From Halichondria panicea (Eukaryota > Porifera > Demospongiae > Suberitida > Halichondriidae), in NCBI RefSeq assembly GCF_963675165.1, contig NC_087385.1:3410501-3474500 (forward strand): 64,000 bases of DNA. Direction: 5' to 3'. Shown one piece after another: positions 14,321 to 26,974 of the stretch. A model generated the notes under the pieces. That model was not told the origin of the DNA and ran no database searches. It was given only the letters and a program-made list of their open reading frames with translations. The stretch's first letter is position 1; each line of letters opens with the position of its first letter. The translations under genes and the position numbers were made by a program.

Positions 14321-16587
14321 CTATGGGGTGTTATCTGTGTCAAAATGACTATGACAATGTACACACGTGTGCATTCATATGCACATTACAATATGCATGT
14401 CAACATGCATATGCACGTTACAATATGCATGCAACATGCATATGCACATTACAATATGCATGCATGCAACATGCATATGCACCTTACAATATGCATGCAT
14501 GCATGCATGCCAACATGCATATGCACCTTACAATATGCATGCATGCCAACATGCATGTCAACATAATATATACACATTACAACATGCATATACACGTTAC
14601 ACAATTATCAAGTCAATATAATAATTACATAGTATGCATGTGCATGTATACTTACACATTACACAATATGCATGTATCCAGATATTGAGAGTAATTACAC
14701 TGTAATTTTGTAGGCAGAAAGGGTGGAGTCTAGATGATGTGGTCATTGGGTCAAAGTGCAAGTGCTCATTATATATAATAGGACTAGCACAATAAATTTC
14801 GTTGGCGCGAGTAATCTTGTCAGCCATATTTTATATCACAGCTAACTAGCTAGCTAGAGTCTGATACACTGTCGGTACTTCTTCTTCTTCCTTATTTTTC
14901 TCGCCTCCAGATTTGGAGAGTAGCCAACGAGGGCAGATTATATTTAGAAGCTCACTCTCCACGTGTCGCCTTCACACTTTTTGTAAGTTGCCCTGCTCTC
15001 TCAGCGCGCTGACATGCTCTCCTGCAGGATGCCTCAACCTGCGTCAGTGTTCACCTCCCCCACGACCCAAGGGCACTACATGACACCCTCTACTCCTGCA
15101 AGGCCTTGTCTGGCTGAAAGCTGCCCACGCGCAAGAGTGGCTCTTGCTCTTCATCAAAGATCTAAGGCAAACCCGCGCTGATCTCCTTCTCACACGCACA
15201 TTGGTTTAAAGCTCCACCCTCTTGCTGCGTGTTATAATACCCAATTTCAATATTCTTTTTTGTCTGCCCAATGGGCTTCATTAATTGGAGGCTACAAAGA
15301 AGAAGAAGAAGAGTCGGTACATGTGGAGTAGGCTTATATTTTTACCGCGCATGCACAATCAAATCAAGATGTCACACCTACTAACAAACTAATTATTGCG
15401 GCGTCTTTTCCAGCTCAAATTGGAGTTGTGTGTACCAATCATTACCCGAGGCGCGCGTGGGCGGCCACGGGTATAGTAGTCCGTTGGTCTGTTTGTTTGT
15501 TTGTAATGTGTGAGTCTACTCACCTGCATGCCATGGCACTGCGTTTACAGCATGGATAGCCTTCATACAACAAGTTATTAATTTTAATAGTGGCAGAATT
15601 TCATGTTAAACCTTCGTTGTCAAATAAAAACAAGCAAAAGCTAAGAAGCTTGTGACTGGGTCTGCTTACCTGGATGCTCTAGCACTGCGTTTACAGCATG
15701 GGTAGCCTCCACACAACAAGTCAGTACTTCTAATAGTGGCAGCTTTCGGTGTTAAAGCTTCGTTGTCTAATAAAAGCGAGCAAAATGTAGCTTGAACAGA
15801 ACTTGCACATGCGTTACTTATAACTGAAGTGATCCTGTACCAGGTCCAGAAACAATGGAACAGGGTCACTAAAGTAGAAAGCTGTATATACCAGGAACAA
15901 TATTGGAACAGGGTCACTAAACCAGAAAGCTTGCTTTAGCTGACTGGGATCCATGCAGGACCTGGAGCCATACTTCTCTGAGACTCCATGCTTCTTTGCT
16001 GTGATCCTAATCCACAGTGCATATATTTATAGTACTACTACCTGTTCTCAAATGTTTCAGCATGCCTCCAGTCTGGTTTAGTTTTATTGCTCCTGAGTTG
16101 CTGTGCAAGTCATGCATGATGATGATAACAACATCACTATATGCACTGCATTATATCAGTCTTCTGGTTTCTTTATAATCATGTCACCAGCCGAGGGTTT
16201 GCACTTTAGTGCTCTAGTTATTATATGGACATGTATATGCATATTATTGGGTGTAAGTGTATAATTATGCTGCCGGAGGTATAATTATTGACATCCCATG
16301 CATGCAGCATAATACTGTAAATGTGTATAATAATTATATGCATGTTGTAATGTGCATATGAATGTTGACATGCATGCATAATTATTGTAACGTGCATATG
16401 CATGTTGACATGCATATTGTATGGTGCATATGCATGTTGACATGCATATTGTAACGTGCATATGCATGTTGACATGCATATTGTAACGTGCATATGCATA
16501 TTGACATGCATATTGTAATGTGCATATAATTTATATGCACACGTGTGTACATTGTCATAGTCATTTTGACACAGATAACACCCCATA
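14321..16587. mobile_element. Large composite element with inverted ends and inverted minisatellites
   Basis: Left end ATGGGGTGTTATCTGTGTCA, then AAATGACTATGACAATGTAC; the right end (16545-16587) is the exact kind of inverse ending TGACACAGATAACACCCCAT. Inside each end lies an array of a CATATGCACATTACAATATG-type unit (14380-14600 and, inverted, 16330-16530). Nested inside are a ~450-bp piece (14875-15325) with TCGGTACTTCTTCTTCTTC inverted ends and an imperfect 140-bp direct repeat at 15520-15790. The termini match those of the 25.6-27 kb elements. Confidence 0.75.
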
Positions 16588-16973
16588 CAATTCTAGCCTC
16601 CTTCACTTCCCTATACCTAAGTGAAGTGGGAAGTGCGGTCTGGGATCGAGGCTAGGTGCAATCCTCGCTCAGCATTAAATTTTGCTTGACTTATGACGTA
16701 ATTTAAATTAATGTAAAGATGTTGCAATGAATGTAATTTTTTTTCATGATGAGCAAAACTACTGAGTTACTGAGTACATAAATTACTGAGTACTAATGAT
16801 AAAAAACCATGTACATGTATATAATAATTATAATGATGAATTAGTTGCTACAAAACAAGTGAAAATAAAAATTAATGTTGAAACATTTAGTTACGTTCTA
16901 GGTGTCCCTCGACAACCTGGACCTCGATTGGCTCCTATCCTATTTGAGAGTATCAGTATGAGAGTATCAATAC

Positions 16974-17957
16974 TGAGGCTATACGTGCAGCAGCCCTACA
17001 CACACAAGGGGCGGATGCAATGATTTGGAGAAGACTGCGTTTGTTGTGAAGTCTAATGACCTATGTGCTGCTGCTTTGGCTGCATGTGCTAGAAGGATAT
17101 GTACCACGTACGTGGACTCAACTGGCTTGATGGCATATACGGCCTGTCGTCTGATCCCCCTGGATAAATGCCCAGGTGTACGCCCGATTGGGATAGGAGA
17201 AGTTGCTCGAAGGATAATTGGAAAGCAATCATGAGAATCGCAAAGCCGGATCTACAGAAATGTGTGGGCTCTCTACAGTTATGTGCTGGCCAGGACGCAG
17301 CTGCTGTTCATTCCATGTCCCATGTGTTTAAAGAAGAAGAAGCAGAGGCAATGATCTTCGTTGATGCCTCTAATGCCTTTAACAGACTTAATAGACAGGT
17401 GGCCCTTCGCAACTCAGAAGTCGTCTGTCCCACACTAGCACCTGTCCTGATCAACACGTACCGAAACAACTCATGGTTGTTTGTTGACGGCCAATGTACG
17501 ACGTCGAGAGAGGGAACTACGCAAGGAGACCCCCTCACAATGGCCATGTATGCTATCGAAACACAACCACTGATACATCGTCTTGATGGCATTGCCAAAC
17601 AAGTCCAGCTGCCGGATCAAGTCTCAAAAGACTCAAGAGGTGGTGGGACCGATTGGAAGCGATTGGGCCACAATATGGCTACTTTCCAAATGGATCGAAA
17701 ACACTCATTGTTTGCAAACCAGAAGCTGTTGAAATTGCCGGCACAATATTCCAAGGCACAGATATTAGCATCTCAACAGAAGGAAAACAATACCTAAGAG
17801 GAGCAATTGGCACCACCTTGTTCCAGAAACAACTAATTGACAAGAAAGTCACAGAACGGGTAGAAGAAATTAAAACACTCAGCACAATCGCAAAAACAGA
17901 ACCACACCCGGCCTTCTCTGCCTTTTAATACACAATGGCGTCTTCTAAGTGGAATTA
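16974..17957 (+). pseudogene. Retroelement reverse transcriptase, broken (copy 1, RT part)
   Basis: Fragments in several frames spell a non-LTR-type reverse transcriptase: [23 protein letters not shown] (motif A Asp), EGTTQGDPLTMAMYA, then the GPQYGYFPNGSKT and GTDISISTEGKQYLRGAIGT regions after a frameshift near 17640. Where copies of this group have a F/YADDA catalytic box the sequence here is decayed, and the frame changes at 17040, 17230 and 17640. It stops at ASSKWN where a 1.3-kb tandem repeat has inserted. The element is therefore dead. Confidence 0.85.
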
Positions 17958-25606: not shown

Positions 25607-26319
25607 ATGGGGTGCCGTTTGTGTCAAAATATTGATGACAAAAACACAAGGTTTTGGTGGTATTTACTAAACATTTGTGGTAAACAACTGATCGAGGGTA
25701 TTTAGTAAATTAATGTCTGAGGGTATTTAGCAAAGGACTGAGGGCCGGTATTTACTAAACAACTGAGGGTATTTAGCAAAGGACTGAGGGTATTTACTAA
25801 ACAACTGAGGGTATTTAGTAAATGTCTAGGGTATTTAGTAAATGTCTGAGGGTATTTAGTAAAGAACTGAGGGTATTTAGTAAATAACTGACTAATCTAT
25901 AATCTGCTCCTGGTACTATAGGGAGATGTGCAGGGCATAAGGTTGTGCACGACTTCTTCTAGAATTCTGTAGCTATAGCTAGAGGTCTACTGTGCCCAGA
26001 TGAATTCCCACTCTGTTAAGAGGAGTAGACAAACGCCTAGTGTTGACCTTGACTCGCTGAAGAGAATACCCTAAATCCCCTCAGCCATTTACTAAAATAA
26101 TGCCTTCAGTTATTTGCTAAATCCCCTCAGCCATTTGCTAAAGTACTCTCAGTCATTCACTAAATGCCCACAGTCGTTTGCTAAATACCCTCAGTTGTTT
26201 AGTAAAAATATCCACAGACATAATATACTAAAATTAATACCCTCAGTTGTGTACTAATCTAAATACCACCAAAACCTTGTGTTTTTATTTCAATATTTTG
26301 ACGCAAACGGCACCCCATA
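25607..26319. mobile_element. TIR element made of inverted 18-bp minisatellites, copy A
   Basis: The ends ATGGGGTGCCGTTTGTGTCA and (right) TGACGCAAACGGCACCCCAT are inverse. The left half repeats CTGAGGGTATTTAGTAAA about ten times, the right half repeats its complement (TTTACTAAATCCCCTCAG). A spacer with AGAGGAGTAGACAAACGCC lies between. Hence the whole element could fold into one large hairpin. Confidence 0.9.
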
Positions 26320-26340
26320 TGAAGAGGCTCTCATGCATAT

Positions 26341-26974
26341 CTATGGGGTGCCGTTTGTGTCAAAATATTTATGACAAAAACACAAGGTTTTGGTGGTATT
26401 TACTAAACATTTGAGGGTATTTGGTAAACAACTGAGGGTATTTAGTAAATGTCCGAGGGTATTTACTAAACAACTGAGGGTATTTAGCAAAGGACTGGGG
26501 GGTATTTAGTAAACAACTGAGGGCCTGTATTTAGCAAATGACAATGAGTATTTAGTAAATAACTGTAATCTGCTCCTGGTATTAGGGAGGTGTGCAGGGC
26601 ACGGGGTGCACGACTTCTTCTAGATTTCTGTAGCTATAGCTAGAGCTCTACTGTGCCCAGATGAATTCACACTCTGTTAAGAGGAGTAGACAAACGCCTA
26701 GTGTTGACCTTGACTCGCTGAAGAGAACATGTCGTTTACTAAATCCTCTCAGACATTTACTAAATGGCTTCAGATCCCCTCAGCCATTTGCTAAAGTACT
26801 CTCAGTCGTTTACTAAATGCCTTCAGTTATTTGCTAAATTAGCGATTTTTGCTAAAGTACTCTCAGTCATTCACTAAATGCCCTCATGCAGTTGTTTGCT
26901 AAATACCTTTAGTTGTGTACTAAATACCACCAATTACCCCTTGTGTCAATATTTTGACACAAACGGCACCCCAT
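26341..26974. mobile_element. TIR element made of inverted 18-bp minisatellites, copy B
   Basis: Same architecture as the preceding element, 22 bp away and in the same orientation, with the same spacer (TAAGAGGAGTAGACAAACGC) and fewer repeat units. Ends ATGGGGTGCCGTTTGTGTCA / TGACACAAACGGCACCCCAT. Confidence 0.9.

What the first reader, a model, noticed from the sequence alone, without database searches (positions are those of the whole stretch)
14321..26974. One TIR family (ATGGGGTGYYRTYTGTGTCAAAAT) links a 2.3-kb composite and two minisatellite hairpins
The ends at 14321/16587, 25607/26319 and 26341/26974 share the same terminal motif, yet the insides differ completely (CATATGCACATTACAATATG arrays versus CTGAGGGTATTTAGTAAA arrays). 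In all three the internal minisatellite is present in inverted orientation on the two sides. This suggests a transposon group that is built as terminal repeat plus inverted satellite arrays, each lineage amplifying its own unit. I know no name for this architecture.
Basis: partly seen in the sequence, partly recalled or inferred. Interest (0 to 1): 0.7.

Follow-up and report, generated by a model that had tools for sequence, protein, structure and literature searches.

The report
Foldback transposons with inverted minisatellite arms
Three stretches of animal (probably sponge) DNA look like "foldback" jumping genes that share one short end sequence but carry different short repeats in mirror orientation, a known architecture that here probably belongs to the little-studied integrase-type transposon group.

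Summary
In detail: six inward-facing copies of the terminus bound three elements (E1 14322-16587, E2 25606-26319, E3 26342-26975) with inverted tandem arrays. E2 and E3 are one subfamily; E1's 2.3 kb includes a nested (GAA)-tailed insert and a Helitron-like 3' end. The architecture has a name: foldback transposon. A contig binned in a bacterial MAG from sponge specimen M carries the same terminus (24/25) with a third, 18-bp unit, also inverted, so one terminus with exchangeable arrays is seen in two genomes. E1 has a 6-bp flank duplication; E2's site has an unfilled counterpart in the other arm of a surrounding palindrome. Ends TATGG..CCATA plus 6 bp match the published IS3EU signature. One MAG contig shows a related terminus (16/25), a 21-bp x2.9 array and then an integrase-type gene. 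Best reading: non-autonomous foldbacks moved in trans by an IS3EU/GingerRoot-like integrase. The architecture is secure; the superfamily is probable (about 0.6). Against it: E2 shows only 5 bp with an extra T each side, E3 shows none, and the integrase-linked terminus is only weakly similar.

The parts
14316..14321 (.). left target duplication of E1, CAATTC
   Evidence: 6 of 6 identical to 16588-16593; 0.19% of 100,000 random flank pairs reach 6 or more
14322..16587 (.). E1, foldback element (TATGGGG...CCCCATA)
14372..14601 (+). E1 left minisatellite array (~32-nt unit around CATATGCACRTTACAATATGCATG), degenerate at its inner end
   Evidence: to 14556; to 14601
14871..14878 (.). left 8-bp direct repeat GTCGGTAC of an insert nested in E1
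14879..15312 (.). insert nested in E1, begins TTCTTCTTC and ends GAAGAAGAAGA; second GTCGGTAC at 15313-15320
15936..16217 (+). part of a dispersed repeat nested in E1, with a Helitron-like 3' end (GCACTTTAGTGC then TCTAG, next base T)
   Evidence: copies elsewhere in the window; four of five other places diverge at the same point
16335..16527 (-). E1 right array, inverted
16588..16593 (.). right target duplication of E1, CAATTC
25551..25604 (+). left arm of an older palindrome that contains E2 and E3
   Evidence: 85% complementary to 27050-27103
25600..25604 (.). left direct repeat of E2, GAAGA (an extra T lies between it and the terminus)
   Evidence: the counterpart in the other palindrome arm has GAAGA once; 0.67% of random flank pairs reach 5 or more
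25606..26319 (.). E2, foldback element
25659..25891 (+). E2 left array, 21-nt unit around CTGAGGGTATTTAGTAAANAA
   Evidence: (25694-25891)
25945..26066 (+). E2 middle domain, 98% identical to E3 26606-26727
26071..26257 (-). E2 right array, inverted
   Evidence: (to 26195)
26321..26325 (.). right direct repeat of E2, GAAGA
26342..26975 (.). E3, foldback element, same subfamily as E2; no exact target duplication found
26395..26565 (+). E3 left array, 21-nt unit
26729..26935 (-). E3 right array, inverted, degenerate
   Evidence: (not listed by Tandem Repeats Finder)
27050..27103 (-). right arm of the older palindrome; with the bases just inside it, it holds the counterpart of E2's site without the insertion

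Best explanation
E1, E2 and E3 are non-autonomous cut-and-paste DNA transposons of foldback architecture. Each has a conserved end (TATGGGGTG...TGTGTCAAAAT, at least 25 nt), then a subterminal minisatellite array, a middle, and the mirror image. A transposase supplied in trans cuts at TA..TA ends and inserts with a short duplication (6 bp in E1). The arrays probably serve as repeated subterminal transposase-binding sites, or help pair the ends; they grow and shrink by slippage and are replaced between subfamilies while the terminus is kept. The transposase is probably an integrase-core (rve-like) protein of the IS3EU/GingerRoot type. Shown: ends, arrays, inversion, the 6-bp duplication of E1, the unfilled counterpart of the E2 site, a third unit in another genome, and a related terminus plus array ahead of an integrase-type gene. 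Inferred: mobilisation in trans, the role of the arrays, the superfamily, and that the host is a sponge.
For: Paired inverted ends with 0 expected by shuffling. All 8 ends of this terminus that I examined (6 in the window, 2 in L002) carry an outer T, giving TATGG..CCATA. E1 is flanked by CAATTC 6/6; 0.19% of 100,000 random flank pairs match 6 or more. E2's flanks joined without the element, its extra T's and one GAAGA align through the junction with the other palindrome arm, score 82 against 68 for the left and 24 for the right flank alone. L002, a contig binned in a Cycloclasticus MAG of sponge specimen M: terminus 24/25 to E2, local matches of 41-43 nt at E 2.7e-6, and an 18-nt unit in 45-nt arms 93% complementary. 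[quoted passage not shown] fungal IS3EU with 6-bp TSDs, TIRs over 30 bp, ends TAYGG..CCRTA (PMC12730594, passages). In that MAG, contig L027 has terminus CATGGCAGGCCGCCTGTAACAAAAA (2180-2204), a 21-nt x2.9 array (2217-2276), an ATG at 2310, and an integrase-core match PF24764 at 3173-3625 (E 1e-50). PF24764 passes its cut-off on 4 contigs of the MAG and in 0 of 14 control genomes. Related termini lie in L025 and L033; L025's best match to the E2 terminus, 18/25, was reached by 0 of 100 shuffles.
Against: E2's repeat is 5 bp with one extra T on each side and E3 has no exact repeat of 3 bp or more at the offsets tested, so the 6-bp length rests on one copy. The L027 terminus starts with C, not T, and matches E2 in only 16/25 positions: 7 of 1000 shuffles of the 229 nt upstream of the ORF do as well, but 32 of 100 shuffles of the whole contig do; L026's best, 15/25, is reached by 91 of 100. 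A looser terminus pattern in the MAG gave 5 matches against 2 for the reversed control. No PF24764-type gene seen has the exact TATGGGGTG terminus at its own end: in L002 such a gene lies outside the foldback. L002's left end runs off the contig. 15 translated pieces of L002 and the L025 and L026 proteins gave no convincing integrase in the window (best E 0.01, 26 aa); L027's piece was read in a wrong frame there, so it was not tested. No binding data for the arrays exist, and unit order was not conserved between the arms of E3.
Confidence: 0.62

Rival explanations
1. Foldback elements of another superfamily (Mutator-like, hAT, P/Galileo or another). Architecture and mechanism are the same but the transposase differs, and the TA..TA ends and 6 bp are coincidental.
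For: [quoted passage not shown] E1's flanks also read as 8 bp with one mismatch (7/8) or 10 bp with one mismatch (9/10), and E3's as 7/10, under shifted boundaries.
Against: The longest exact E1 flank repeat at the four offsets tested is 6 bp, and it leaves both ends symmetrical. The ends fit TAYGG..CCRTA. A related terminus lies ahead of an integrase-type gene.
Confidence: 0.27
2. Not a transposon family in the strict sense: inverted duplications of host minisatellites produced by palindrome-forming recombination, with similar ends kept by conversion.
For: E2 and E3 are neighbours inside an older palindrome. E3 shows no TSD. Other inverted pairs are frequent in the window.
Against: One terminus bounds different interiors at distant sites and in another genome. 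E1 has an exact 6-bp flank repeat, and the E2 site has an unfilled counterpart.
Confidence: 0.05
3. E1 and E2/E3 are separate families that took up the same terminus secondarily by recombination or capture, rather than lineages in which the array was replaced.
For: By eye, similarity between E1 and E2 stops after about 35 nt; units are 32, 21 and 18 nt with no evident shared sequence.
Against: Arrays start at a similar distance from the terminal T: 54 nt in E1 left, 59 in E1 right, 53 in E2 left and 53 in E3 left.
Confidence: 0.2

Closest known systems
Foldback (FB) elements and FB-like elements: Tm1 (Meloidogyne), Tetris (D. virilis), Galileo (Drosophila)
   Same: Inverted arms that hold tandem repeats in variable number, around a middle domain; often non-autonomous. 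Tm1 has a terminal motif, then 13-15-bp repeats, with MITE-like and transposase-bearing groups (passages).
   Different: Tm1 and Tetris have 8-10-bp TSDs; Tm1's transposase is Mutator-type and Galileo's P-type. Here the one exact duplication is 6 bp with TATGG..CCATA ends, and unrelated units of 18, 21 and 32 nt sit under one terminus.
IS3EU/GingerRoot superfamily
   Same: TA..TA ends, 6-bp TSD usual, TAYGG..CCRTA in fungi, integrase-type transposase (passages).
   Different: No transposase was found in the elements themselves; the passages read do not mention foldback arms or subterminal minisatellites.
MITEs that carry tandem repeats (review PMC9659126, passages)
   Same: Non-autonomous class II elements with internal tandem repeats that can seed satellites.
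   Different: Here arrays stand in mirror orientation on both arms and form most of each arm.

Membership tests
Foldback architecture (a structural class, not a clade) | Long inverted arms made of short tandem repeats | tested here: met
   for E1-E3 (E3 right array only by the repeat finder); L002 in part
Foldback architecture (a structural class, not a clade) | Variable repeat number between arms and copies | tested here: met
   rough parsing: units left/right E1 6/5, E2 10/10, E3 9/8, of unequal lengths
Foldback architecture (a structural class, not a clade) | Target-site duplication | tested here: inconclusive
   E1 6 bp exact; E2 5 bp with extra T on each side and an unfilled counterpart; E3 none
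IS3EU/GingerRoot | TA..TA termini | tested here: met
   8 of 8 ends of this terminus begin TATGG (6 in the window, 2 in L002)
IS3EU/GingerRoot | TSD usually 6 bp | tested here: inconclusive
   1 of 3 elements
IS3EU/GingerRoot | Integrase-like DDD/E transposase in the autonomous partner | tested here: inconclusive
   L027 links a related but not identical terminus (16/25) to a PF24764 gene; no autonomous copy with the exact terminus seen
IS3EU/GingerRoot | Transposase phylogeny with known IS3EU proteins | not testable with these tools
   no IS3EU reference proteins at hand
Mutator-like foldback (Tm1 type) | 8-10-bp TSD | tested here: inconclusive
   E1 has 7/8 and 9/10 and E3 7/10 only with shifted boundaries; no exact 8-10 bp in any of the 3 elements
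Repbase family with uniform interior | Match to a catalogued family | not testable with these tools
   Repbase not held; no whole genome held for the window

The most novel reading that the evidence does not exclude
A foldback lineage of the integrase-type IS3EU/GingerRoot superfamily in sponges, in which a subterminal minisatellite of 18-32 nt close behind the terminus (37-59 nt in where measured) is a functional but exchangeable cassette (repeated transposase-binding site). It is already present in the autonomous element (L027, 21 nt x2.9) and amplified in mirror copies in the non-autonomous ones.
Probability: 0.3. Interest if true: 0.55.

Novelty: new variant of a known kind. Interest (0 to 1): 0.42.

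Why it matters
Foldback arms have been tied mainly to Mutator-type transposons, with exceptions such as Galileo of the P group. If these belong to an integrase-type superfamily, the architecture arose again in another transposase lineage, which favours a functional reason (repeated binding sites, end pairing) over accident. One terminus with three unrelated units also gives a natural experiment on what in the arm matters: position and repetition rather than sequence. It would also be a source of new minisatellites in these genomes.

Tried and rejected
Repbase-type and host-genome tests: not possible; no whole genome is held, and metagenome scans are capped at 0. Viral contigs: the 24-nt terminus gave 0, a looser 21-nt pattern 1 (L017; I judge it chance from the surrounding sequence), and the E1 and E2 array units 0 and 0. 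Genome contigs: 2 stretches. L001, with 1 match, I judge chance: the 20 fixed bases expect about 0.5 match in 257 Gb by my arithmetic, the match sits in a contig without tandem repeats, and it lacks the outer T. L002 is kept. G001 C214 (3 mismatches) is a contig with long ORFs of bacterial look, rejected. The looser pattern in G001 gave 5 matches against 2 for the reversed control; the narrower one, drawn from L025 and L027 themselves, gave 3 against 0.

Rfam found nothing in the window at gathering thresholds. Pfam on three ORFs from E1's middle found nothing; the other E1 ORFs were not scanned. The unit parsing is rough: it missed E1's outermost right unit and counted a stretch before the array in E3 left. 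Comparisons between E2 and E3 in that test gave 77 (left-left), 25 (right-right), 119 and 48 (crossed) of 300 shuffles as good. In one search the L027 5' piece was read in a wrong frame, so its search of the window tells nothing.

Papers: 'foldback' with 'Porifera' gave 1 unrelated listing; 'TATGGGGTG' with inverted repeat and transposon 0; IS3EU, GingerRoot, foldback, subterminal, sponge, Amphimedon (any two) listed 25 of 1,275, none of the 25 holding IS3EU or GingerRoot. I make no firm claim that an IS3EU foldback is not in print.
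Full report
OBSERVATION. The terminus ATGGGGTGYYRTYTGTGTCAAAAT occurs six times in the window at up to 3 mismatches, as three inward-facing pairs; 100 shuffles gave none. Adding the outer T present at all six ends, the elements are E1 14322-16587, E2 25606-26319 and E3 26342-26975. E1's two ends are identical for 53 nt counting the outer T and then run into a ~32-nt-period array; E2 and E3 have a 21-nt-period array. Arrays are in mirror orientation in all three, E3's right one being degenerate (not listed). E2 and E3 fold on themselves far better than shuffles (0 of 20 as good in each).

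CORRECTIONS. E2 and E3 are one subfamily: 556 of 599 gap-free aligned columns identical and a 122-nt middle 98% identical. E1's larger size is partly nested DNA: an insert at 14879-15312 flanked by GTCGGTAC on both sides, and a dispersed repeat (other copies in the window) ending GCACTTTAGTGCTCTAG|T. Five other places in the window carry this hairpin or a one-base variant; four of them (48710, 63221, 56748 and 4360 on the minus strand) run to CTCTAG|T and then differ, while 58411 reads CTATAC. I read it as a Helitron-like 3' end from recall.

INSERTION. E1 is flanked by CAATTC on both sides, exact, adjacent to TATGGGG and CCCCATA. Of 100,000 random flank pairs tested at four offsets, 0.19% reach 6 or more and 0.67% 5 or more. 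E2 sits in the left arm of an older palindrome (25551-25604 / 27050-27103, 85% complementary). The right arm preserves the corresponding sequence with GAAGA once, while E2 has GAAGA on both sides plus one extra T at each end. Flanks joined without E2 align through the junction (score 82) better than the left (68) or right (24) flank alone. E3 shows no exact duplication. The 6-bp length therefore rests on one copy.

RELATIVES. A scan of the genome collection (84,980 genomes by the tool's description) returned two contigs. L001 looks like a chance match. L002 (LWTN01000133.1) is binned in a Cycloclasticus MAG from sponge specimen M (title) but has a CA microsatellite, no stop-to-stop ORF over 139 aa and broken-up pieces of an integrase-type gene (PF24764, C133, one match over the cut-off, E 1.7e-7). 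I take it for host DNA (inference). It carries the terminus twice (24/25 to E2; local matches of 41-43 nt, E 2.7e-6) and an 18-nt minisatellite, GATCGTCGCCCTGATTTG, whose arms are 93% complementary over 45 nt. Its first ~50 nt match a hairpin repeat on another contig of the MAG, so the left arm is probably interrupted and the left terminus lies off the contig. Thus three unrelated units (32, 21 and 18 nt) sit under one terminus in two genomes.

SUPERFAMILY. [quoted passage not shown] E1 fits all of these. In the MAG, PF24764 integrase-core matches pass the cut-off on 4 contigs (C118, C139, C127, C133; 5 of 10 listed matches), while of 14 control genomes 3 show a match and 0 pass the cut-off. 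On C127 (L027) the order is: terminus CATGGCAGGCCGCCTGTAACAAAAA 2180-2204, array of 21 nt x2.9 at 2217-2276, ATG at 2310, integrase domain 3173-3625 with one in-frame stop that I take for an intron; the first 144 codons themselves match no Pfam family. The terminus type recurs on C118 and C138 with different neighbours; on C118 it points away from that contig's integrase gene. Matches to E2's terminus are 16/25 (L027), 18/25 (L025) and 17/25 (L033). Significance is mixed: L025 0 of 100 shuffles; L027 7 of 1000 for the 229 nt upstream of the ORF but 32 of 100 for the whole contig; L026 91 of 100. L026 (C139) has a 23-nt x4-5 minisatellite at 267-390, about 0.9 kb before its integrase ORF, but no terminus was recognised.

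MECHANISM. Non-autonomous foldbacks moved in trans by an integrase-type transposase. The array starts 54 nt (E1 left), 59 (E1 right), 53 (E2 left) and 53 (E3 left) from the terminal T, and 37 nt from the start of the L027 terminus. A similar place with changing sequence suggests a subterminal role such as secondary transposase binding, which has been proposed for tandem repeats in other transposons (PMC3573991, passage). This step is inferred. Unit order is conserved between the arms of E2 (3 of 300 shuffles as good), weakly in E1 (26 of 300) and not in E3 (99 of 300) (rough parsing), so some arms may have been copied as wholes and then drifted; independent amplification is not excluded.

PLACE AMONG KNOWN THINGS. 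The architecture is that of foldback elements (passages). Tm1 in particular has a terminal motif followed by variable 13-15-bp repeats in both arms. What differs is the probable superfamily and the exchange of unrelated units under one terminus. Host identity was not established: a class I (Glu/Gln) tRNA synthetase domain, a weak class II one below its cut-off and a death effector domain just below its cut-off suggest an animal, and L002 a sponge.

Noticed in passing
window 16201-16217, 48710, 63221, 4360 (-), 56748 (-): Dispersed non-coding repeat whose copies end with hairpin GCACTTNAGTGC followed by TCTAG|T and then differ; looks like a Helitron-type 3' end.
   Followed up: partly
window 14871-15320: Insert inside E1 with 8-bp direct repeats GTCGGTAC, starting TTCTTCTTC and ending GAAGAAGAAGA; probably a retroposon with a GAA tail.
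   Followed up: partly
window 11088-12405: Tandem array of ~137-157-nt units containing a palindrome ATTTGCGTTAACGCAAAT.
   Followed up: no
window 12963-13055, 13954-14039, 14205-14299: 95-99% identical inverted copies of a repeat next to E1's left flank, with GGCCTGGGATCGAGGCTA, a motif also seen near E2.
   Followed up: no
window 25551-27103: Older palindrome (arms of 54 nt, 85% complementary) that contains both E2 and E3.
   Followed up: yes
window 36365-36967 (-), 47321-47875 (-), 62134-62637 (+): Exon-like ORFs with a weak class II and a class I (Glu/Gln) tRNA synthetase domain and a death effector domain (the first and last below their cut-offs).
   Followed up: no
L018 14121-15875 (G001 C203): Hairpin repeat with TTTCCAATCCCGTNCCCGTAGGTTATACTATCTATGATA, similar to the start of L002.
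   Followed up: partly
L026 267-390 (G001 C139): 23-nt x4-5 minisatellite upstream of an integrase-core ORF, possibly another subterminal array.
   Followed up: partly
L002 623-644 and 3256-3277: Exact 22-nt direct repeat on both sides of the integrase-type gene pieces, one copy directly abutting the foldback's outer terminus.
   Followed up: no
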